Source: Rhodanobacteraceae bacterium
GTDB lineage: Bacteria; Pseudomonadota; Gammaproteobacteria; Xanthomonadales; Rhodanobacteraceae
DNA length: 64,000 bases
NCBI GenBank assembly: GCA_016790075.1
Contig: JAEUPP010000068.1
Coordinates: 124,001 to 188,000 of the forward strand
Direction: 5' to 3'
Shown: positions 10,885-23,806 of the stretch, piece after piece
How the letters are laid out: the number at the start of each line of letters is the position of its first letter
How positions within the stretch are numbered: the first letter of the stretch is position 1
Notes under the pieces: model-generated
What the model was told of the DNA's origin: nothing
What the model saw: only the letters and a program-made list of their open reading frames with translations
Database searches by the model: none
Translations under genes and position numbers: made by a program

Positions 10885-10961
10885 CGGGGCGTAGCGCAGC
10901 CTGGTAGCGCATTTGCCTGGGGGGCAAAGGGTCGTGGGTTCAAATCCCGCCGTCCCGACCA
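10885..10961 (+). tRNA. tRNA-Pro(GGG)
   Basis: A 77-nt cloverleaf. The acceptor stem is CGGGGCG with CGTCCCG, followed by discriminator A and an encoded CCA. The anticodon arm is TTTGC-CTGGGGG-GCAAA, giving anticodon GGG, and the T-arm holds GGGTTCAAATCCC. Its last 19 bases are duplicated at 23788-23806, so this gene is the attachment site of the element downstream. The integration left the tRNA intact. Confidence 0.98.
10943..10961 (+). repeat. attL, 19-bp direct repeat
   Basis: The 3' end of tRNA-Pro including CCA, identical over 19 bp to 23788-23806. The bases on either side differ between the two copies, so the repeat limits are exact. Confidence 0.93.
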
Positions 10962-11058: not shown

Positions 11059-12870
11059 GTGGCATCAAGCTACCTTGTCCGAAGGCAGTCAGCCTTCCAC
11101 TTCCGCATCTGTGTTCCTCCCGACCTCGCCGTCATTGCGGGCCGCAAAGAGTTCCGTGTCTCACTCCGGGATACTCGGTCGCGCGAAGCTGTCCGTAAGG
11201 CGTCGCTCTACGCGTCGCACTGTCTGAATTTCTTTGCCTTCCTGAGAATGGCCAACAAACACCTTTCGCCCAGCGAAATCGCCGCGATGGTCGCCGACTG
11301 GCGTCGCCGTATGTTCTCCAAAGACGCCGAGGTCCGCAGGCGCATTGAACTGGGCGTTGATCCTTGGTCATTGGAGCAGTTCGCCACCAACTGCGACGCG
11401 ACCAGTGATCTCATGCGTGAGCAGTTTTGCCGCTTGTTCCACCCGCCAATCGAGTCCCATCCGGCGCAGGAGCGGGCGTGGGAGCCACCTAGCAAGCGTG
11501 TGCAGGCGGCTGCGTATGCAGAAGTAGCATCAATGATGACCACTGATGAGGTCGGCGACTTTGTGCCGCTACTGTCGGCCGATGAGCTCGCCGGGCTGGA
11601 CGAGATATCGCAGCGCGGCCTCGCCCATGAGTTCCTGACAGAAGGGGCGGCGGTATACGCCGAGAAGTGGGAGAAATGCCTCACGCTAACGACCTCGGAA
11701 ACGCGAACTGCCGTTTCAGCCCCGGCCGAGATAGCTACGCCGGCCGCACTGCTGTCCACGGCAACCTCCAGCACGCATGGAAAGCGGGTGTCCGAAGCCT
11801 GGGCGCAATTCGTTGCCGAGCAGGCCAAGACGGCCAGCGGCTGGCGTGATGGCGTTGTCCCCCAAAAGGCACGTCTGGCTATCGATGACTTCCTAGGGCT
11901 GCTTGGGGATCGGGAAGTTGGCTCCCTCACGCGGGAGGACGGCAAACGGTTCCGCGACTTCCAAGAACGGCGTCCGCTTGGCAACAAGTCCGCCTATCGC
12001 GGGATAGACGCTGCAACGTTGGAGCGGATGGACATTCCGGAGGCCGACCGGCAGCACAGCAACACAGCGCAAACCAAGTTGGCGCATATCAGCGCCTTCC
12101 TGGCTGACTGTGTGAAAGAGGAACTGCTGCCCCGCAACCCGTTGGATGGCTTGCAGGTGGAGCTACAGGAATCAATCAGGCGGGAACCGTGGACGCCGGA
12201 AGAGGTTCGGCTACTGCTGGACCCGGACAACATGAAGGCGCATAGCGGGCTACTGGAGCCACGTGCGAACGTCGGATATTTGCCCTGGCTGGTCGTCATG
12301 GGGGTCTACACTGGGGCACGCATGAGCGAAATTCTCGGCGCCCGCATCGAGGACTTTGACCGCGAAGATCCGCATACCACCAAGGCGCGGGTTCCTGTCC
12401 TGCGAATCGAGCCGCACCCCTTGCGTGGCATCAAAACTCAAGCGGCAATACGGAAGATCCCGCTTCATCCTGACCTGATAGAGCTTGGGCTGTTCGAGTA
12501 TCTGGACTGGATGCGCGGTCGTGGTCGCCATCTCTGGCTCGATTGCCCGTCGAAAGGAGGCAAGCTTCAGAACGCGGCGACTCGACATTTTCGGAAGTAC
12601 ACAGAGAACAGCGGGGTCTACGAGGAAAACGTGAAGGTCTTCCATTCGATGCGCCATGCCTTCAAGACGATGGCGGAGGGTGATCTTACAAAGCCGGATC
12701 TAGATATATTGGCGGGCCACAGTCGCAGTGACGCAGCAGGCGATGTCTACTCACATCCGCTGCGAATGCCGATGCATCGACACTATGCTGGCATTTGCAC
12801 AATGCAGGTAGGTGCGGACATACCTGCTTTGCGTGAACTGCTACTCATGCCGTTATCTGGGCGGGCATAG
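11059..12870 (+). CDS. Tyrosine recombinase (integrase) of the island
   Basis: 603 aa, start GTG at 11059 (SSYLVRRQSAFHFRICVPPDL, the N-terminal signature of large tRNA-targeting island integrases). A middle SAM-like core-binding domain lies at about 250-355. The catalytic domain is complete: Arg421 (YTGARMSEI), His529 and Arg532 (HSMRH), His554 (LAGHS), and nucleophile Tyr564 (DVYSHP). It should recombine attL and attR. The gene is oriented away from attL with about 100 bp of spacer holding the TTGGTACG repeats. No excisionase gene of the AlpA type was found. Confidence 0.93.
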   Translation: MASSYLVRRQSAFHFRICVPPDLAVIAGRKEFRVSLRDTRSREAVRKASLYASHCLNFFAFLRMANKHLSPSEIAAMVADWRRRMFSKDAEVRRRIELGVDPWSLEQFATNCDATSDLMREQFCRLFHPPIESHPAQERAWEPPSKRVQAAAYAEVASMMTTDEVGDFVPLLSADELAGLDEISQRGLAHEFLTEGAAVYAEKWEKCLTLTTSETRTAVSAPAEIATPAALLSTATSSTHGKRVSEAWAQFVAEQAKTASGWRDGVVPQKARLAIDDFLGLLGDREVGSLTREDGKRFRDFQERRPLGNKSAYRGIDAATLERMDIPEADRQHSNTAQTKLAHISAFLADCVKEELLPRNPLDGLQVELQESIRREPWTPEEVRLLLDPDNMKAHSGLLEPRANVGYLPWLVVMGVYTGARMSEILGARIEDFDREDPHTTKARVPVLRIEPHPLRGIKTQAAIRKIPLHPDLIELGLFEYLDWMRGRGRHLWLDCPSKGGKLQNAATRHFRKYTENSGVYEENVKVFHSMRHAFKTMAEGDLTKPDLDILAGHSRSDAAGDVYSHPLRMPMHRHYAGICTMQVGADIPALRELLLMPLSGRA

Positions 12871-12925
12871 GCGCGATGTGGTGAGAGCAGTTGTGCTTTG
12901 GTTTTCCAACTAGAGAAAGAAAGCT

Positions 12926-13453
12926 ATGAATGCACTCTCGATAAAGCTCCTGAGGTTTTTGCGCAACAACAATCTAAGAATCGGAGATGTAGTACCAGAG
13001 AAACCGTTCAGGTTTGGCTTCCTCATGGGCTTGAACCCGAAAGAACAAGCAGAGCTTGACGACGCGATGGCAGGCCTCGTGTCTATCGGATACTTGGAGG
13101 AACGTACCCCCACTCGGTATGGGAGCATCCCGCTATTCTTGACCAAGCCAGGCTTCGATCACATCTACAGCTCAGAGTTTGAAGAAGCCACCGACATCGG
13201 AGCAGCGACGATGACTGTCCAGAACTTCAATTTCCACGGTACATCTAACAATATACAAATTGGCAACAATAACACTCAGCAGATCGTTTCAGCGATTGAA
13301 CTGCTTGCGAAGGAAATCGACAAAGCGAATGTTCCTGAGGAGGCCAAGGCTGAGGCGAAAGGTCGACTAGCGGCTGTCTTCGACAATCCTGTGATTTCAG
13401 GACTGCTTTCTGGAGTTGGGGTGGAAGCGCTAAAGAAGCTGGTCGGCCTGTGA
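12926..13453 (+). CDS. Winged-helix protein with RHIM-like IQIG amyloid motif
   Basis: 175 aa of unknown function, first gene of a three-gene operon. Residues 1-80 look like a winged helix (LLRFLRNNNLRIGDVV, then MAGLVSIGYLEERTPTRYG). Residues 98-120 are a beta, Asn/Gln-rich patch holding IQIG at 110-113 (FHGTSNNIQIGNNNTQQI). The I/V-Q-I/V-G core is the RHIM amyloid tetrad of RIPK1/RIPK3, and RHIM-like motifs are known in bacterial amyloid-signalling (BASS) defence proteins. The C-terminal 50 residues are a helical bundle ending in a hydrophobic turn (ISGLLSGVGVEALKKLV). A homotypic-assembly adaptor role is inferred from the motif only. AGAGAAAG upstream is the likely ribosome binding site. 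Confidence 0.7.
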   Translation: MNALSIKLLRFLRNNNLRIGDVVPEKPFRFGFLMGLNPKEQAELDDAMAGLVSIGYLEERTPTRYGSIPLFLTKPGFDHIYSSEFEEATDIGAATMTVQNFNFHGTSNNIQIGNNNTQQIVSAIELLAKEIDKANVPEEAKAEAKGRLAAVFDNPVISGLLSGVGVEALKKLVGL

Positions 13454-13480
13454 CTGAATTGATGACTACCGGGGCATCCA

Positions 13481-14350
13481 ATGGACAGCAAGTTCATCGA
13501 ACAAATCACTCGGTACCAGCGCGAGTTTGAGCAGCAGTACAAGCCAATCGCAGACGCGATCCAGGCGTCGCTCAAGCACGTGTACACGCCCGACATCGTC
13601 GCTACAAAGGCGTACTTCAGTCAGATCGAAGATCAATTCAGCAAGCCCGTAGCGGAGATAGCGCGTGGGCTGGAAAAGCATTTCGAGTACGCGTCGAGGC
13701 TGGCTAAGGAGGCTCAATCAGTCTATGACGCAATGGCGGAGTTACCCAGCTCGATCCGTGCCGAGCTGGGCGTGCTTGCCGCGCGGGGTTGGTATCTTGA
13801 TCCCGAACTGCCGGCGTCCGCGCCAGCGAAGCTCAGAGAGGCAATCGAAGCCGGGGACCATGACGCCGCCGATACGGCACTTGTCCGGTACTTCGCTGAA
13901 GAACTACCGACGATCAGGAATCACCTGACAGCCAAATACCCAAAGCGTGCTCATATCTTCAATCGAGCATTTGATGCCCATGTACGAGGTGAGTATGAGC
14001 TTTCAGTCCCTGTGCTGTTGGCTCAGGTGGACGGCATATGCTGGGACGTGACCTCGTTCCTGCTATTCAAGGCTGACAACAAACGGCCTGAAATTGCAAA
14101 GTACGCTGATCATTTTGCAATGAACGCCTACAGGCACGCCCTGTTGGCTCCCTTGCTCGAAATGCATCCGATCTCTGCATCAGCGAAAGCACGTCCTGCC
14201 AATTTCGATGGCCTTAACCGTCATCAGGTGTTGCACGGAGAATCGGTAACGTACAATACCGAGATGAACAGCCTGAAGGTTGTCTCCCTGCTGAAATATC
14301 TGTCGTGGGTGCTGCACTTCACTGACGAGGACAGTTCAACGAACATCTAG
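13481..14350 (+). CDS. HEPN-like protein (RxxxxH), second gene of defence-like operon
   Basis: 289 aa, largely helical. Residues 1-85 are a charged coiled-coil-like segment (EQITRYQREFEQQYKP..., ARGLEKHFEYASRLAKEAQ). The C-terminal third ends in FDGLNRHQVLHGESVTYNTEMNSL, where Arg247-x4-His252 followed by Gly matches the catalytic RxxxxH of HEPN RNases. HEPN proteins are common toxins and abortive-infection effectors that cut RNA; that function is inferred here. It lies 27 nt after the IQIG protein and 17 nt before the SIR2 gene, so the three are almost surely one transcript. No family name can be given with confidence. Confidence 0.65.
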   Translation: MDSKFIEQITRYQREFEQQYKPIADAIQASLKHVYTPDIVATKAYFSQIEDQFSKPVAEIARGLEKHFEYASRLAKEAQSVYDAMAELPSSIRAELGVLAARGWYLDPELPASAPAKLREAIEAGDHDAADTALVRYFAEELPTIRNHLTAKYPKRAHIFNRAFDAHVRGEYELSVPVLLAQVDGICWDVTSFLLFKADNKRPEIAKYADHFAMNAYRHALLAPLLEMHPISASAKARPANFDGLNRHQVLHGESVTYNTEMNSLKVVSLLKYLSWVLHFTDEDSSTNI

Positions 14351-14367
14351 CCGAATAGGAGGTGTCC

Positions 14368-15363
14368 ATGATCGTCCCAGCTAAGCGACTAATCGAGGAG
14401 CCGCTGAATCTACCGCCGCATGTCGTGCTGCTTGGGGCTGGAGCAAGCCGCGCGGCATTTCCGAACGGTGACGCGGGCGGGCATAGACTGCCTGTAATGA
14501 ATGACTTCGTGACAGTGCTCGGACTGTCGGACCTTCTTAGGGATGTGCCACAAGGCGCAAACTTTGAAGACACCTATTCCCTTCTTCGCACCGACCCGCA
14601 ATACACATCAGTCGCTGACGAGTTGGAGCAGCGGATATACGAATACTTCACCGAACTCAGTCTGCCGGACACCGCGACTCTCTACGACCGCCTTGTTCTC
14701 TCCATGCGAGGCACGGATGCCATTTTCACGTTCAATTGGGATCCGTTTCTGTTTGACGCGTACTTGCGAAACCGAGACGTAGCAACGTTGCCAGAGATAT
14801 TCTTCCTCCACGGCAATGTACGGATTGGCAGCTGCTTGGATCACGGGCGCTGGGGGCACTATGCCGGCCTGTGCCCTGACTGTGGGAAACCCTACACCTC
14901 GGTTCCGCTACTGTATCCGATTGGCAAGAAGGACTATTCCTCTAGCGGGTACATTGCTGGGAGCTGGGACAATGCCAGAGCCTGGTTCAAAGGCGCGTTC
15001 ACCATGACTGTATTCGGCTATGGCGCTCCGCAATCAGATGCAGACGCAGTTGAACTGCTTCGTTCGTCATGGCTTGAAAAGAATGAGCGCGAAATGGAAC
15101 ATGTCCATATCATCGATCTAGCCGACGACGATGTTCTGCATGAGCGATGGGCGCCATTCACTCCAACGCTGCACCTACACACCTACCGCCACTTCAGTGA
15201 GTCACACCTCGCAAGGTGGCCGCGAAGGTCATGCGAATCGATCTTCTACCCGATGAGGGACGCAACACCTTGCCTCGACTTCCCATTGCCTGAAACTGAG
15301 AGCCTGGACGAGCTGCAAGACTTCGTGCGAAAAATTGCTACGCACGAACCTCCCGCTACTTGA
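14368..15363 (+). CDS. SIR2-like protein, third gene of defence-like operon
   Basis: 331 aa. Residues 19-27 (VVLLGAGAS) form the NAD-binding glycine loop of SIR2. TFNWD at 121-125 matches the conserved T-x-N-x-D segment, and LHG at 147-149 supplies the His that is catalytic in the family. A C156, C169-x2-C172 cluster recalls a partial zinc site. SIR2-like domains in defence systems (Thoeris ThsA, DSR, SIR2-HerA, SIR2-Argonaute) deplete NAD+; the same is inferred here. The start was chosen at ATG 14368 because AGGAGG occupies 14357-14362; a GTG at 14362 overlaps that site. It ends 3 bp from the end of the convergent next gene. Confidence 0.8.
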   Translation: MIVPAKRLIEEPLNLPPHVVLLGAGASRAAFPNGDAGGHRLPVMNDFVTVLGLSDLLRDVPQGANFEDTYSLLRTDPQYTSVADELEQRIYEYFTELSLPDTATLYDRLVLSMRGTDAIFTFNWDPFLFDAYLRNRDVATLPEIFFLHGNVRIGSCLDHGRWGHYAGLCPDCGKPYTSVPLLYPIGKKDYSSSGYIAGSWDNARAWFKGAFTMTVFGYGAPQSDADAVELLRSSWLEKNEREMEHVHIIDLADDDVLHERWAPFTPTLHLHTYRHFSESHLARWPRRSCESIFYPMRDATPCLDFPLPETESLDELQDFVRKIATHEPPAT

Positions 15364-15366
15364 CTG

Positions 15367-16545
15367 CTAGCGTCGCGAACAGGATTCGCCCCATTCAGTC
15401 CGATTCGGATCAAGGTGTGGGGTCGGCAGATTAAAGGTCGTAAATAGAGGCGTCAGTGTCGCCTCGATGATCTTCCCGAATTCCAAGGGCGAATCTGGGA
15501 GCATGTCTAGACGGGTCTCGGGACACAGAACGAAGCCCGTAGAGGTGTGGGTACTTTCAGCGGTTCTGTTCTTCAAGCCCAGGCGTGCGCCAACCAAATA
15601 CCAAGCTGATATCGAAACCAGCAGCGGGGTGATGCCTAGATGATCATCTAGAACACGCAAGTGTTCGTAACAGTTGACAAGAAGGCGAACAATTGTGCTT
15701 TCAGGTAGAACCTTCATTTCTGGCGGGCCTAGAAAAGCCTTTCCTCCCGCTACAGCCTCGTAACTTCCGTTGTGGAATACTTGGAAGCCACATCCCGCAT
15801 GACCCGGGTCGCCTTTTGTGTACCTGAGAAAGCCATCTGCGTTGAACGTGGTCTTGTCGACAGCTTCAATGTTGGCAAGCTTCTCAGGGCGAAGTGATGC
15901 AAAGTCCACTTGACGATGCGCGTGACGCGAAAGCGCATGGAGCGGAACGGCATGCAAGGCTATCAGTGGATACGCATGACCCCACACATTCATACCATTT
16001 AGATGATTCAGCCGCGCCGTTCGGAACCTGTCAAAGCGATCCAGAACGATTTCATGCTGTAGGAAAGAGGAGCGAAGCGCATCAATGTCCATGGGCGTCT
16101 TACCGCTGGGCGTTCTCTCGTAGAAGATGCGCGTTCCTGTGTCTCGGTGTGGTCCGGACGGACTGCGCGGAATCCGAATCACGACAAATGCTCGGTCCTC
16201 GGAGTTCAGTGTAGGGATGACCTTGCAGTCAACGCCCCTTAGCGGTGGCTCCAGGTTCGATGCCAAGATCTGCGCAATTGACGTACTCAGGTCAGTCGCC
16301 TCGCCAATGGTGATACCGGTTGCTGCGACTGCTACCTCTTCGGCCTCATCCACCCCTAGGACAATGTCTCCGCCGTTGCTGTTCGCGAACGCCATGATGT
16401 CCGCGACCATCTCGCGCTTCTTGTTGACGTCCTTCGTATTCCAAACCTCGCGCTTGAACTCAAGCGTGCGGCTTTCGCGAATGCCATCAGCGACAAGTGC
16501 GGTTATCGATTCAGCGGTCAAAGCAGCAAGAGTCTGGTGCAGCAT
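15367..16545 (-). CDS. Schlafen/AlbA_2-type putative nuclease or nucleic-acid-binding protein
   Basis: 392 aa. Residues 12-165 match the Schlafen AlbA_2 fold: RESRTLEFKREVWNTKD, then KREMVADIMAFANSNGGDIVLGVDE, and later RAFVVIRIPRSPSGPHRD and IFYERTPSGKTPMD. In Schlafen proteins the acidic residues in this fold cut tRNA or other RNA; bacterial members are often annotated as ATP-binding or HTH proteins and are frequent in defence islands. Residues 170-392 are not recognised. It is second in a minus-strand pair, 64 nt after the endonuclease-like gene, and converges on the SIR2 operon with 3 bp between stop codons. Confidence 0.75.
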   Translation of the reverse strand: MLHQTLAALTAESITALVADGIRESRTLEFKREVWNTKDVNKKREMVADIMAFANSNGGDIVLGVDEAEEVAVAATGITIGEATDLSTSIAQILASNLEPPLRGVDCKVIPTLNSEDRAFVVIRIPRSPSGPHRDTGTRIFYERTPSGKTPMDIDALRSSFLQHEIVLDRFDRFRTARLNHLNGMNVWGHAYPLIALHAVPLHALSRHAHRQVDFASLRPEKLANIEAVDKTTFNADGFLRYTKGDPGHAGCGFQVFHNGSYEAVAGGKAFLGPPEMKVLPESTIVRLLVNCYEHLRVLDDHLGITPLLVSISAWYLVGARLGLKNRTAESTHTSTGFVLCPETRLDMLPDSPLEFGKIIEATLTPLFTTFNLPTPHLDPNRTEWGESCSRR

Positions 16546-16609
16546 GACGGAATGCTCTCTGCGAATTCAAAAGTTGGGTCAATAAGTGCGTTCTGCGCGA
16601 CAGGGGTCA

Positions 16610-17527
16610 TCAGACATACCGCGCTTGCGGCCTCATTTCACCTGTCTCACTGTTCCGTACGATATCGATGATGATCAATCGTCCGTCAGGCAGAGTCTTT
16701 GGGCCAAATGACGCAATGTGCCCAATGGGCGCATCGGCATGCGGAACATACTCGCGAACTTCGCTGAGCGGAAGGTCATGCTTCGTGCGGCTAACGGTCG
16801 CGTCGAAGTCGATGCGGTGAACGGGAATATCACCAACGCACGTCGGTACGACGAACGGGCTGTCCGGATAGTCCACTCGTAACGGCACCATGTGTTGCGC
16901 ACCGTCTGGTTCGCAATGATCCGGCCGCAATAGCCCCTGCTGCTTGTACATCATCTCCGCAATCTGCAATAGCGAGAACGCTTGCCGAGTATGCGGACTG
17001 ACCAGCAATGGAGCATACATTTGGATCGAACTTGTCGTCTCGCGCATCACACGCTGGTGCTCGGGATCTTCGCCAACAACGAGGCTTGTACGGTCTAGAT
17101 TGAATGACCAATGATCGTAGGTCACGGTGCTGGCAGATGCCCACCAACTCGCCGGATCATCAAGGGCCAGGGATGACAGCGTTCGTAACTCGACACTTAG
17201 CTCACGGGCAGCATGTCGAGCCGCAGAAGTGAAGCCCGTAGACGAGACAGCAATCACTGTGCTGGCGCGGAACCGTTGCCGTCGTCCTGCAACTTGTTCA
17301 ACCCAACCGGCATCCTGCGGTCCTGACAGAGGGCGGTCGCGGCACTCGATCAGGCAGCAATAGTCCGCTGTGCCAATCCGGCCGGTAATACGCAAGTCGA
17401 ATTCGGCTAGCTGAATCCCATCGCGGTATTCGCGCACATTGGATTCAACCTTGAACCCGTCAGGCAAGTAGGCCTGTTCCAGGGCGCTAACCAGTGCTTC
17501 AAGTGCTCGACCATCATTGCGTGTCAT
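16610..17527 (-). CDS. Restriction-endonuclease-like protein (Mrr-type fold)
   Basis: 305 aa from ATG 17527 (MTRNDGRALEALVSALEQAY). The longer upstream frame to 17782 has no ribosome site or family likeness and was left out. The N-terminal 115 residues read as a PD-(D/E)xK core: Asp44 (AEFDLRI), then Glu61-Cys-Arg63 (LIECRD) where most members have ExK, and Gln78 in the next helix. The Lys to Arg change could lower or alter catalysis. The rest (120-305) is unrecognised. It heads the minus-strand pair with the AlbA_2-type gene, so it may be the DNA- or RNA-targeting partner. Confidence 0.6.
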   Translation of the reverse strand: MTRNDGRALEALVSALEQAYLPDGFKVESNVREYRDGIQLAEFDLRITGRIGTADYCCLIECRDRPLSGPQDAGWVEQVAGRRQRFRASTVIAVSSTGFTSAARHAARELSVELRTLSSLALDDPASWWASASTVTYDHWSFNLDRTSLVVGEDPEHQRVMRETTSSIQMYAPLLVSPHTRQAFSLLQIAEMMYKQQGLLRPDHCEPDGAQHMVPLRVDYPDSPFVVPTCVGDIPVHRIDFDATVSRTKHDLPLSEVREYVPHADAPIGHIASFGPKTLPDGRLIIIDIVRNSETGEMRPQARYV

Positions 17528-17951
17528 CGTCGCGTTTCTCTGGCTTATGTCAGTGGTCCGTGGCAGGTGTCGAATTCCCGAAGGGCTACTCACCATGGCT
17601 CGTGAGCGCTGCCGGACGATGCCAATAGACAGTCGCCTTCCGGGGCTTCGACTATAGATACCGAAACCTGAAAAAAATAAGCACCCCGAGAGCCACGAGG
17701 GTGTGACGAATGTGCGGGCGTCCGTTCGGTTGGCATGGTCGTGCGTTGGCGTCAACATGAAGTCGTGCCGCCAGATCGCCACAGATCACCACAGATCGCA
17801 TTTTGCGGGCAGCAGACACGCAACCGCCGTCGTTCTGCCTCGTGGCGCTGAATCGCGCTCCTGTGTCCGCGTATGCGGCGCCAGCCATGCGCCGGCTCGA
17901 CACGGTCGGACAGCCAGTCATTGCCCTTGCCATGAGCACACGGACTTCGGA

Positions 17952-18195: not shown

Positions 18196-19464
18196 TCACC
18201 TGTTGGCGTGTTCCACCATGACCTCCGCATCAACACCGACCCTGGAACGGAAGCAGGTCATCATCACTTCACGTGCTATGTCTTCATCGTCATCAGCAAC
18301 GATCACGCTGTCGTGAACAGGAAGCGCAACGACCTCTCTGTCGATCAGCTGCAACAGGATATCGATCATCAATTCACTGTCAGCGAACTGTGCGCGGCGT
18401 CCGAAGCCGCTACCGAACAGTGGTGCTATCGGTTCGTGTCTACGCCGGATTGAATCGACGACATCGACGAACTTCGTCCCTTTGCGGAACAGTGATCGCG
18501 TTCCGCTGGGGAACCTCGTCAGCGGTGTATCCGCCGACAGCAGTGCGACCAAGATCTTCTTGATCCCGGCTCGTGGATATCCGGCAATCGCATACTGGTC
18601 ACCCGGCGGCAGCGCTGCGCCAATTTCGCCGTAGGCGAGCCGCACAGCTGTCTGTCCGAAGTCGAGGCTAGTGACGGGGCGCCCATCGATCCGGATCGCC
18701 TGTAGTCGCGCTGAGGCCGTCATGCTGGATTGCCAGAATCCACCGTAGAGCCGACCGCCCAAGTTGAAGCAAGCCTTGTTGAAGACTCGTTTCAGGAACC
18801 GGTTTCCCGTGTCGATGATCTTGTCATCAAGCGTCGCGTCAAGGCACGTAATGTCCGCCTTCGCGAGCCACGCATTGATCCGTTGCATGTCTTGCCGGTA
18901 ACGGCGTGTCTGATCGGTGTCGTCGTAGCTCAGTGTCTTCGCCTTCCCGGCGAACTTGGTTCCTCGCAAGACGATAGGATCACCCATCAATGACGGATCA
19001 CAGGTGAGGTCATCCAGCGACAGCGATTCAATGCGAGACCGTAGACGCGGACCAGCTCGGACAGTGGACAGCCTTCCGCCAAGTTGAGCTTTGTGACCTA
19101 GACGAAGCTCCAATAGACCCAGTTCCTCAGCAGCCAAGCGCTTCACGATGTCGGGGAAGACCTCGTTGAGGATGTGCGGGACATCGCTGTTTGATCCCAA
19201 CTTGGATTTGCTCAGCGGTACAGCAAGCCACATACCGGGGCCGGTCACTTCGCGATGGATTGCATCGCAGGTCAGGGCCGTTACGGTCGATACAAACCGG
19301 TCTTGATCACGGGCCTTGCGAACGCGTTTCCGCATGCCGTGATCGGCTTCGTAACGTTCAACTTCAAGGATGACTTCGGAAACCAGGTCTGATGCCTCGT
19401 CCGACACCGGGATACGCGCAGGGTTGAACAGACGGTCATTGCCGTCGAGTGGCTCGGTGATCAT
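18196..19464 (-). CDS. Protein with family-A DNA polymerase palm motifs
   Basis: 422 aa, not an ordinary annotated family to me. The C-terminal half carries a motif order like DNA polymerase I: SLDFGQTAVRLAYGEIG (266-282; compare motif A DYSQIELRxLA), PRAGIKKILVALLSA (297-311; an R-x3-K O-helix-like segment) and LPVHDSVIVA (381-390; compare motif C QVHDE). The motif C acid after His is Asp385. The N-terminal 180 residues are unrecognised and no 3'-5' or 5'-3' exonuclease domain is visible. A primer-extension role in element replication or repair is inferred. It is transcribed alone toward the repeats and terminator downstream. Confidence 0.5.
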   Translation of the reverse strand: MITEPLDGNDRLFNPARIPVSDEASDLVSEVILEVERYEADHGMRKRVRKARDQDRFVSTVTALTCDAIHREVTGPGMWLAVPLSKSKLGSNSDVPHILNEVFPDIVKRLAAEELGLLELRLGHKAQLGGRLSTVRAGPRLRSRIESLSLDDLTCDPSLMGDPIVLRGTKFAGKAKTLSYDDTDQTRRYRQDMQRINAWLAKADITCLDATLDDKIIDTGNRFLKRVFNKACFNLGGRLYGGFWQSSMTASARLQAIRIDGRPVTSLDFGQTAVRLAYGEIGAALPPGDQYAIAGYPRAGIKKILVALLSADTPLTRFPSGTRSLFRKGTKFVDVVDSIRRRHEPIAPLFGSGFGRRAQFADSELMIDILLQLIDREVVALPVHDSVIVADDDEDIAREVMMTCFRSRVGVDAEVMVEHANR

Positions 19465-22698: not shown

Positions 22699-23589
22699 CT
22701 AGACGTTGCCGTCAGCAGCGGGTGGTGGTTCCCCGTCAGGAGGCGTTTCGTTTTGGGCAGGAAGCTGCTGAGCAGGTCTTGGTGCGATGATGTCTTGTAT
22801 GGCTCCATCTACTCTCCCCTCTACTTGTTGGGCAATATTGGCCGTCTGAACCAGTTCTTCTTCATATGCTTCATGGACTGTGGTGATCAAGTCAGCGCGT
22901 ATGTCCGATCCACGCCCCAGGCCCCATATAAAGAAGGTGTCAGTATCGCTGCCGACACCGGGAGCAACCTCTGCGCGTTTCTTTGCAATGTAGGCACGAT
23001 ACAGCGCCTTGTGTAGAGGTGCTGTGGCAGTGTGTCCAGAAAACATGAGATGGGAATTCGCATGGTACGCGCCACTCCCCGTCGCAGCGAAGCCGATTGC
23101 ATCCTGACAGAGTATTTCGGCTCCCTTGGCCACGTAAATGTGGGGGCCGGCGCTGTCAACTCCAGCAAAGATGACCTCTATCACTGGGAGTCTGTATTGG
23201 AGAAGCTCTGCGGCCAACCTGTTAGCGAGTGACGACGAAAGCTGTTTCTGCCTGCTAAGAAATGTCTCGCTTGTCAGCCCTAGCGGCGTGAGTACCGTCC
23301 TCTCAGCCTCTCGGCGGAGTCGATCTAGGTATATCGCCCGCCAACAACCAGCGATGTCTGCGACTCTCCACCAATTCTCTGGTTCGGCGGTGATCCTGGC
23401 TCGAACGACGACCTCAACCTCATCTAGCAATTCACTGGCAAGGGCGATGTGGCCTGCAATCATCGCCACGACGGATGACGTCAGCCAGATGATCTTCGAT
23501 CGCTGGGGGGAAAACTGAACGTCCCCTGCGGTCACCATTCGGTCCGACATGCCCAGTACTGCACCTTGAAGTAGCACTGCCACACACAC
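22699..23589 (-). CDS. Proteasome-like Ntn hydrolase, start disturbed by TG repeat
   Basis: About 296 aa resembling the proteasome-beta/HslV-like Ntn-hydrolase fold: GAVLGMSDRMVTAGDVQFSP, SSVVAMIAGH, IEVIFAGVDSAGPHIYVAKGAEI, DAIGFAATGSGAYHA and KKRAEVAPGVG. Relatives I know open MTVCxA, with Thr2 as expected for an N-terminal nucleophile after Met removal. Here the ATG at 23597 (GGAGAGAG just upstream) reads ATG ACC G then (TG)5 GCA, which leaves frame; (TG)4 would give MTVCVAVLLQ in frame. As it stands only a GTG inside the repeat (23589) is in frame, and the product would lack the Thr. Either a pseudogene, a contingency switch, or a sequence error. The C-terminus is Pro-rich. Confidence 0.7.
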   Translation of the reverse strand: MCVAVLLQGAVLGMSDRMVTAGDVQFSPQRSKIIWLTSSVVAMIAGHIALASELLDEVEVVVRARITAEPENWWRVADIAGCWRAIYLDRLRREAERTVLTPLGLTSETFLSRQKQLSSSLANRLAAELLQYRLPVIEVIFAGVDSAGPHIYVAKGAEILCQDAIGFAATGSGAYHANSHLMFSGHTATAPLHKALYRAYIAKKRAEVAPGVGSDTDTFFIWGLGRGSDIRADLITTVHEAYEEELVQTANIAQQVEGRVDGAIQDIIAPRPAQQLPAQNETPPDGEPPPAADGNV

Positions 23590-23787: not shown

Positions 23788-23806
23788 AATCCCGCCGTCC
23801 CGACCA
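23788..23806 (+). repeat. attR, 19-bp direct repeat
   Basis: Exact copy of the last 19 bases of tRNA-Pro(GGG), CCA included. The bases before it do not continue the tRNA, so this is the displaced bacterial half-site. Confidence 0.93.

What the first reader, a model, noticed from the sequence alone, without database searches (positions are those of the whole stretch)
12926..15363. Candidate new defence system: RHIM-like IQIG protein, HEPN-like protein and SIR2
Three tightly spaced genes on a mobile island encode (1) a winged-helix protein with an amyloid-type IQIG segment flanked by Asn/Gln, the core tetrad of RHIM motifs in necroptosis proteins, (2) a helical protein with an RxxxxH motif typical of HEPN RNases, and (3) a SIR2-like protein with NAD loop, TxNxD and His. 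I know SIR2 in Thoeris, DSR, SIR2-HerA and SIR2-Argonaute, and HEPN in many abortive systems, but not this trio. A model is that the IQIG protein senses or assembles and activates one or both effectors (NAD depletion, RNA cleavage).
Basis: partly seen in the sequence, partly recalled or inferred. Interest (0 to 1): 0.85.

Follow-up and report, generated by a model that had tools for sequence, protein, structure and literature searches.

The report
RHIM-like protein in mobile gene island
A small piece of inserted DNA in a bacterium carries three neighbouring genes, one with a short motif resembling the one that builds death-signalling fibres in animals, one with an RNA-cutting signature and one with an NAD-enzyme fold; they look like phage-defence cargo, but the three were not found together elsewhere, so they are probably not one fixed system.

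Summary
The three genes are real, same-strand and tightly spaced (27 and 17 nt apart), on a 12.85-kb island bounded by an exact 19-bp repeat of the tRNA-Pro 3' end. Gene 3 is well supported as a SIR2 fold with canonical motifs plus a zinc ribbon. Gene 2 keeps R-x4-H in 8 of 8 aligned sequences, but no HEPN family matched and its model failed (pLDDT 39): HEPN is a motif-level call. Gene 1's IQIG segment belongs to a rare mobile family: a constant C-terminal module (Q-[IV]-G-[ND]-x-N and what follows) behind either a winged-helix-like or a second kind of N-terminus. One phage member passes Pfam's RHIM cut-off; the window protein does not match it. The trio was not found elsewhere: in 121 fetched loci, relatives of the three genes occur together only in copies of this locus. 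The module does recur beside other conflict genes: third gene after a SIR2-APAZ/short-Argonaute pair, after a kinase-containing gene set (broken copy), and in prophages. Best reading: an assembly/adaptor module used outside NLR systems, here next to two effector-like genes. Defence, amyloid formation and coupling are untested.

The parts
10885..10961 (+). tRNA-Pro (ggg), integration target; 10943-10961 is the left 19-bp direct repeat
   Evidence: ARAGORN; exact repeat
11059..12870 (+). island integrase (DUF6538 over cut-off; Phage_integrase 0.00035, below cut-off)
12926..13453 (+). protein 1 (P0001, 175 aa): winged-helix-like N-terminus, IQIG segment, conserved C-terminal module
   Evidence: residues 94-157 match phrog_16834 at 3.3e-5; aligns over residues 8-164 with an Enterobacter plasmid protein; phmmer to phage and other family members 3e-11 to 3e-5
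13202..13450 (+). RHIM-like module of protein 1 (residues 93-175); tetrad IQIG is residues 110-113 (13253-13264), IQIGNNN ends at 13273
   Evidence: Q-[IV]-G-[ND]-x-N in 12 of 12 aligned members
13481..14350 (+). protein 2 (P0002, 289 aa): helical-looking protein of family phrog_28904 with HEPN-type R-x4-H
   Evidence: 1.7e-22; R247 and H252 invariant in 8 of 8
14219..14236 (+). R247-HQVL-H252 motif of protein 2
14368..15363 (+). protein 3 (P0003, 331 aa): SIR2-fold protein with zinc ribbon; ATG at 14368 after AGGAGG
14434..14448 (+). GAGAS NAD-loop of protein 3 (residues 23-27)
   Evidence: at least 90% conserved in 18 sequences
14725..14811 (+). FTFNWD (residues 120-125) to catalytic-type His148 of protein 3
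   Evidence: both motifs invariant
14833..14883 (+). zinc-ribbon cysteines C156, C169, C172 of protein 3
   Evidence: invariant
15367..16545 (-). convergent Schlafen/AlbA_2 protein (neighbouring cargo)
   Evidence: 1.6e-14
16610..17782 (-). Mrr-like restriction endonuclease domain protein (neighbouring cargo, below cut-off)
   Evidence: 0.0031
23788..23806 (+). right 19-bp direct repeat, end of the island

Best explanation
An integrase-driven island at tRNA-Pro has picked up a short run of conflict genes. Protein 1 is a member of a rare, mobile family of assembly (adaptor) proteins: a variable N-terminal domain (winged-helix-like here) that would sense or bind something, and a constant C-terminal module whose Q-[IV]-G-[ND]-x-N segment resembles a RHIM and would drive homotypic self-assembly. 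In this locus it most likely clusters and so activates, or holds in check, the neighbouring R-x4-H protein 2 (a probable HEPN RNase); protein 3 is most likely a self-sufficient SIR2-fold enzyme acting on NAD+, because its relatives stand without a common partner. Shown: gene order, island ends, SIR2 motifs and predicted fold, conservation of the QxGxxN segment and of R-x4-H, recurrence of the module beside other conflict genes. Inferred: self-assembly, RNase and NAD+ activity, any coupling among the three, and defence against phage.
For: Module constant while the N-terminus changes: Q-[IV]-G-[ND]-x-N in 12 of 12 aligned members, several of them close relatives (the divergent Phaeobacter member L074 was left out there; with it, in 14 rows, Q and G stay at 90% or more and N is invariant). 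Protein 1 finds the phage, Enterobacter and G107 members by phmmer at 3e-11 to 3e-5. Winged-helix-like type: window, Enterobacter plasmid L075, viral contigs L086-L088. Second type: third gene of a SIR2-APAZ/short-pAgo operon, 37 nt after the pAgo gene, and 10 phage loci, of which L076 is phage ENT39118 itself and L082, L084, L085 carry the same protein over the stretch printed. A broken winged-helix-type copy follows vWA-like, phosphatase-like and kinase-like genes. RHIM (PF12721) matches 8 of 14 members, one over the cut-off at 26.4 bits, E 4.7e-6; the family profile's best PDB matches are RIPK1 RHIM peptides, E 0.054 and 0.062. SIR2. R-x4-H in 8 of 8. Defence-type neighbours on the island.
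Against: Protein 1 itself has no RHIM match in a scan up to E 10 (the program's filters drop most matches above 0.1), and its genome has none at E 0.5 in a search where chance RHIM matches of 12-22 bits were common: 53 of 299 genomes. So the seven 14-16 bit matches carry little weight alone, and the RIPK1 match is not significant by itself. No member of the module family was found beside a relative of protein 2 or 3 outside this locus. Proteins 2 and 3 carry no Q-[IVLC]-G. Protein 2's model failed and no HEPN family matched any of 8 sequences. No significant PADLOC match for any of the three. No promoter-like site was found, so co-transcription rests on spacing. One structural paper states that the SIR2-APAZ/Ago complex it studied does not form higher-order oligomers (PMC10474274, passage read), so an assembly partner is not a known need there. 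TM-scores of the SIR2 matches stay below 0.5 by query length.
Confidence: 0.35

Rival explanations
1. Three unrelated cargo genes that happen to lie in a row; each works alone, like the Schlafen/AlbA, Mrr-like and other genes next to them, and there is no joint system.
For: In 121 fetched loci relatives of the three genes coincide only in copies of this locus. 262 neighbouring ORFs of 22 SIR2 loci and 7 protein-2 loci gave only two clusters, each of two loci. The protein-2 profile matched in 1 of 22 genomes or records that hold a protein-3 relative, weakly (E 1.9e-4) and about 249 kb away. Rest of the island is mixed cargo.
Against: Same strand and gaps of 27 and 17 nt; family members sit in tight clusters elsewhere too (37 nt, 13 nt). 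Several loci are cut short by contig ends (L003, L006, L008, L009, L010) and many are metagenome bins, so partners may be missed.
Confidence: 0.3
2. Genes 1 and 2 are a toxin-antitoxin pair: a winged-helix DNA-binding antitoxin with a self-assembly tail upstream of a HEPN-type RNase toxin; the SIR2 gene is separate. The QxGxxN segment is an ordinary oligomerisation element, not an amyloid.
For: Gene order and spacing; winged-helix-like N-terminus and R-x4-H protein; no RHIM match for the window protein.
Against: The module occurs without an R-x4-H gene recognised next to it in the prophage loci and in L086-L088, and with a SIR2-APAZ/pAgo pair; protein-2 relatives lack a protein-1 relative nearby.
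Confidence: 0.2
3. The RHIM-like family is a mobile-element immune modulator: phages and islands carry it to block or bait host assembly-based immunity, as animal viruses carry RHIM decoys.
For: 10 phage loci; in 7 of them (L076, L077-L081, L083) the gene runs against the direction of its neighbours, an accessory-gene position, in ENT39118 between annotated lysis genes and the Q-like gene. A viral RHIM decoy is known in an animal virus (PMC7375649, search listing with start of abstract).
Against: Presence as third gene of a SIR2-APAZ/pAgo operon and after a kinase set argues for use within immune loci; no host target with a matching motif was sought.
Confidence: 0.1

Closest known systems
Bacterial amyloid signalling sequences, BASS3 (RHIM-like), in NLR/effector gene pairs
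   Same: RHIM-related short motif in bacterial proteins, thought to assemble (PMC7889193, PMC8086366, PMC7885112; passages read)
   Different: No NLR match among the proteins scanned and no shared motif on a second protein here; the motif sits mid-protein, before a conserved C-terminal stretch. The BASS3 letters themselves were not compared
Animal RHIM (PF12721; RIPK1, RIPK3, ZBP1, TRIF)
   Same: I/V-Q-I/V-G tetrad; one phage member passes Pfam's cut-off
   Different: Window protein gives no Pfam match; bacterial; fibre formation untested
SPARSA (SIR2-APAZ with short prokaryotic Argonaute)
   Same: A relative of protein 1 is the third gene after such a pair in genome G107; SIR2 fold in gene 3 here
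   Different: No significant Argonaute or APAZ match among the window proteins scanned; SPARSA is described as an operon of pAgo and SIR2-APAZ, while a three-gene short pAgo system is known in Sulfolobus (PMC10781750, passages read)
SIR2 defence proteins and effectors (ThsA, DSR2, KomC, SIR2 of SIR2-HerA)
   Same: SIR2 fold with GAGAS, TFNWD and His
   Different: A 331-aa protein with a zinc ribbon as in deacetylase sirtuins and no long extra domain; no significant SIR2-type Pfam or PADLOC match in 18 members (AbiH 0.017 in two and SIR2_2 0.16 in one are the nearest in kind)
HEPN ribonucleases
   Same: R-x4-H with a polar residue after Arg, invariant in 8 of 8
   Different: No family match and no usable model

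Membership tests
RHIM (PF12721) | profile match over the gathering score | tested here: not met
   window protein 1: no match up to E 10; among 14 family members 1 passes (L082, 26.4 bits)
RHIM (PF12721) | (I/V)-Q-(I/V/L/C)-G tetrad flanked by polar residues (recalled definition) | tested here: met
   IQIG in NNIQIGNNN, conserved as QxGxxN in the family
RHIM (PF12721) | forms cross-beta fibres | not testable with these tools
   needs purified protein or peptide
BASS amyloid signalosome | motif shared by an NLR and an effector encoded next to each other (PMC7889193) | tested here: not met
   motif occurs once in the window, neighbours 2 and 3 lack it, no NLR match in the 7 proteins scanned; NLRs elsewhere in the window were not sought
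HEPN RNase | R-x4-6-H motif (recalled definition) | tested here: met
   R247 and H252 invariant in 8 of 8
HEPN RNase | HEPN helical-bundle fold | tested here: inconclusive
   model pLDDT 39 with 2 sequences; no HEPN among Pfam matches; best PDB sequence match 0.49, unrelated
SIR2 | SIR2 fold | tested here: met
   model pLDDT 87.7, pTM 0.89; the 26 Foldseek matches at E up to 0.001 are all Sir2 enzymes or SIR2 effectors, probability 0.99-1.00, though TM-scores by query are 0.31-0.48
SIR2 | NAD loop, N and D of TxNxD, catalytic His | tested here: met
SIR2 defence effector | NAD+ depletion on infection | not testable with these tools
   needs assay
Thoeris, DSR, SIR2-HerA, SPARSA | component models of each system in PADLOC | tested here: not met
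   no significant PADLOC match for the 6 window proteins scanned (best 0.036)
A new three-gene system | the three genes recur together | tested here: not met

The most novel reading that the evidence does not exclude
A mobile family of RHIM-like adaptor proteins works outside NLR systems in bacteria: one constant self-assembling module is joined to different sensing domains and plugged into different immune effectors (SIR2-APAZ/Argonaute, a kinase set, HEPN-type and SIR2 genes), and temperate phages carry it too.
Probability: 0.22. Interest if true: 0.8.

Novelty: new variant of a known kind. Interest (0 to 1): 0.5.

Why it matters
[quoted passage not shown] The family described here, if its segment assembles, would give a small, directly testable case: a module of about 80 residues, found in phages, beside a SIR2-APAZ/Argonaute pair and on this island. 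It would also point to a possible accessory protein in short-Argonaute immunity (one operon seen). The SIR2 family of gene 3, found in genomes labelled with several phyla with its motifs intact and matched significantly by no SIR2-type Pfam or PADLOC model, is a separate candidate worth an NADase assay.

Tried and rejected
Trio as a conserved system: looked for in the loci of proteins 2 and 3 and rejected. In the scan three other frames fitted a loose motif (L002, L012, L016; 52, 97 and 58 aa) and were dismissed as chance; one search found no protein-1 relative there. Protein 1 was not searched genome-wide in the 22 genomes or records; only the fetched loci were checked for it.

Relatives of protein 1: plasmids, phages and viral contigs gave none by direct search; its C-terminal piece in plasmids gave one chance match, E 9. 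A DNA pattern for NIQIGNNN in viral contigs gave 4 loci, none taken as a relative. phrog_16834 in 229 genomes matched G000 and G152, the latter in an enzyme-like frame. In the order search 54 of 250 genomes had a match at E 1; of the 20 loci fetched only those of G000 and G107 carry the motif, and the weaker places were not fetched. In the phylum search 6 of 398 had a match at E 0.01: G000, G107 and G538 accepted; G569 and G373 rejected; G384 has a similar C-terminal stretch but no Q-[IV]-G and is left open. A profile of two module sequences found nothing in viral contigs.

RHIM as a genome-wide marker: rejected, because chance matches are frequent; of its 30 loci I looked at ten, which seem chance, three being response-regulator-like receivers. 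The one over the cut-off is a short frame opposite a long one.

HEPN next to the Enterobacter copy: L075 has a protein with RNFFAH about 0.8 kb downstream, at first taken as support, but the 3 copies in viral contigs (92-100% identical over the protein) lack it nearby, so it is not counted.

Stenotrophomonas L028, whose upstream gene is annotated DeoR-type: DeoR and NosL matches beside copper genes, not a protein-1 relative.

No E. coli match was found for the phage gene (near mode) or the Enterobacter gene (distant mode). Searching the G107 pAgo in 31 genomes of its genus gave only itself and one weak match of E 1.6e-4, so the three-gene operon is seen once.

Print: no paper describing RHIM-like proteins in phages, in short-Argonaute operons or with HEPN/SIR2 genes was seen in the listings of searches; listings were capped at 15-20 papers, the library holds open-licence papers only, and Dyrka et al. 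2020 (BASS) was not read.
Full report
What is there. The window holds pheT- and ihfA-like host genes (recalled from the sequences), tRNA-Pro at 10885-10961, an integrase (11059-12870), then three same-strand genes: 12926-13453, 13481-14350 and 14368-15363. The gaps are 27 and 17 nt; the third gene has AGGAGG just before its ATG. The last 19 bases of the tRNA recur exactly at 23788-23806, with a mean of 0.00 matches in shuffles, so the island is about 12.85 kb. GC is 0.53-0.58 in the 1-kb steps from 12 to 20 kb, against 0.60-0.66 from 24 to 40 kb; the steps at 9 and 10 kb read 0.62 and 0.58. Other cargo: a Schlafen/AlbA_2 protein (1.6e-14), a weak Mrr-like domain (0.0031, below cut-off), a phrog_4756 protein, a proteasome-family protein, and IS3-type transposase and resolvase-like frames (recalled from the sequences). 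No promoter-like site was found in 12700-15500.

Protein 3 is SIR2-like. No Pfam, NCBIfam or PADLOC family fits it significantly. Relatives: 18 loci in genome contigs under titles of several phyla, 35-57% identity in the best segment, 6 plasmid records, 4 of them with at least 80% covered, 2 of 147 related genomes including its own, none in phages. Alignment A2 holds 18 sequences, the window's and 17 of those 18 loci; L006, where the gene lies in two frames, and the plasmid and G118 relatives were left out, and L009, L011 and L013 are partial. GAGAS is at least 90% conserved; FTFNWDP, LHG with His148, and C156, C169 and C172 are invariant. The AlphaFold2 model has pLDDT 87.7 and pTM 0.89. Foldseek against the PDB gave 26 matches at E up to 0.001, all Sir2 enzymes or SIR2 effectors: Sir2 deacetylases first, then the E. 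coli SIR2 dodecamer, ThsA and KomC; DSR2 and AVAST5 follow at 0.0016 and 0.0054. TM-scores by query are 0.31-0.49 and rmsd is high, so the match is of the core, not of the whole. That it consumes NAD+ is inference.

Protein 2 belongs to phrog_28904 (1.7e-22). Relatives: 11 plasmid records, 1 with at least 80% covered, none in phages, one viral contig, 2 of 229 genomes with the phrog model including the window's own, and only the window's own among 398 with alignment A1. In 8 aligned sequences R247, H248, V250, H252 and G253 are invariant, as [NS]RHxVxHG. That fits the HEPN motif as I recall it. Against it: no HEPN model among the Pfam matches of any of the 8, best PDB sequence match 0.49 and unrelated, no PADLOC match, and an unusable two-sequence model (pLDDT 39). 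HEPN is therefore a motif-level call.

Protein 1 and its family. The protein has no Pfam match; residues 94-157 match phrog_16834 (3.3e-5). The one accepted relative among 250 genomes of the order is in G107 (1.2e-9, 42% over residues 100-165). There it is a 161-aa protein encoded 37 nt after a short pAgo gene, itself overlapping the end of a SIR2-APAZ gene (best PADLOC matches 6.8e-214 for SIR2-APAZ and 1.7e-205 for pAgo). That protein as a query gave a near full-length relative in Cronobacter phage ENT39118 (4e-31; two records of one phage) and partial ones on a Phaeobacter (two records) and an Enterobacter plasmid. Further scans gave 10 phage loci (L076 is ENT39118, and L082, L084 and L085 show the same protein) and 3 loci of 92-100% identity to the Enterobacter protein. 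Protein 1 finds all these except the Phaeobacter one by phmmer at 3e-11 to 3e-5. The Enterobacter protein aligns with protein 1 over residues 8-164 at 26% (3e-11 for the single comparison), so the winged-helix-like N-terminus is shared. A broken copy lies at the end of a contig of G538, after vWA-like, phosphatase-like and kinase-like genes (the kinase-like gene has PDB kinase matches at 0.002, the phosphatase-like gene none; the vWA and phosphatase names are recalled). The family thus has two kinds of N-terminus and one C-terminal module.

Is the module a RHIM? For: 12 of 12 aligned members, several closely related, keep Q-[IV]-G-[ND]-x-N (Phaeobacter L074, where the segment is degenerate, was not in that set; in the 14-row alignment with it Q and G stay at 90% or more and N is invariant). 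RHIM matches 8 of 14 members: of 10 scanned again, L082 has 26.4 bits against a cut-off of 20, and L073, L077-L079, L081 and L083 have 14-16 bits; the G107 protein has 14.1. The family profile's best PDB matches are RIPK1 RHIM peptides, E 0.054 and 0.062. Against: the window protein itself gives nothing up to E 10. As a control, RHIM searched in 299 genomes matched in 53 at E 0.5 (one of them G107, where one of two matches is the module itself) and passed the cut-off in 1, at 21.9 bits in a 72-codon frame; the ten of 30 loci I looked at seem to be chance. So only L082 stands above that background, and the case rests on conservation within the family. The motif count (29 hits in 4325 ORFs from 121 overlapping sequences, 0.15 expected in shuffles; hits outside the family are L035, L036 and L089) is biased, since many loci were fetched because of this family or this pattern.

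Do the three belong together? Among the 121 loci held at the end, phmmer relatives of proteins 1, 2 and 3 coincide only in copies of the window's own locus (earlier on 28 loci). In 22 genomes or records with a protein-3 relative, the protein-2 profile matched once, weakly (1.9e-4), about 249 kb from the SIR2 gene of that plasmid. Clustering of 262 neighbouring ORFs within 4 kb in 22 SIR2 loci and 7 protein-2 loci gave only two clusters, each of two SIR2 loci. Caveats: L003, L006, L008, L009 and L010 end within 1 kb of the gene, many loci are metagenome bins, ORFs were picked mechanically, and partners may diverge beyond reach. Proteins 2 and 3 have no Q-[IVLC]-G, unlike the BASS and fungal pairs, where sensor and effector share the motif (PMC7889193, passages read).

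Mechanism. A constant module with changing partners suggests an assembly or adaptor protein. I think that it most likely brings together or controls the R-x4-H protein, and that the SIR2 gene acts alone; I give this 0.35. Close rivals are plain cargo without coupling (0.3), a winged-helix antitoxin with a HEPN toxin (0.2), and a mobile-element immune modulator like viral RHIM decoys (0.1).

Known context. RHIM-like signalling motifs in bacteria are in print for NLR/effector gene pairs (PMC7889193, PMC7885112, PMC8086366 and PMC12881547, passages read), and whether such motifs work without NLRs is posed as an open question in PMC7889193. SPARSA is described as an operon of pAgo and SIR2-APAZ, with a three-gene short pAgo system in Sulfolobus mentioned beside it (PMC10781750, passages read). 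[quoted passage not shown] I saw no paper on this family or trio in the listings of searches. I therefore call it a new variant of a known kind, with moderate interest: the proposed trio is weaker than claimed, while the family behind gene 1 is more interesting than the single locus showed.

Noticed in passing
   Followed up: partly
L082:5974-6459, also L084 and L085 (viral contigs): Phage protein whose segment passes Pfam's RHIM cut-off (26.4 bits, scanned in L082).
   Followed up: partly
   Followed up: partly
   Followed up: no
window 18196-19464 (-): phrog_4756 protein with an LDFGQ...VHDSV pattern that recalls family A DNA polymerases (recalled, no named family match).
   Followed up: no
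window 22699-23589 (-): Lone proteasome-family protein (PF00227, 27.8 bits, above cut-off) at the right end of the island.
   Followed up: no
window 15367-17782 (-): Schlafen/AlbA_2 and Mrr-like proteins on the opposite strand, convergent with the trio, further defence-type cargo.
   Followed up: no
L027:5986-8261 (Pseudoalteromonas piscicida plasmid): A protein-3 relative directly followed by a second frame that begins with another SIR2-like NAD-loop pattern (by eye).
   Followed up: no
L026 (Vibrio coralliilyticus plasmid pOCN014): Protein-3 relative in a stretch with an annotated SIR2 protein, a SLATT protein and a McrBC-type protein, a defence-island setting.
   Followed up: no
   Followed up: partly
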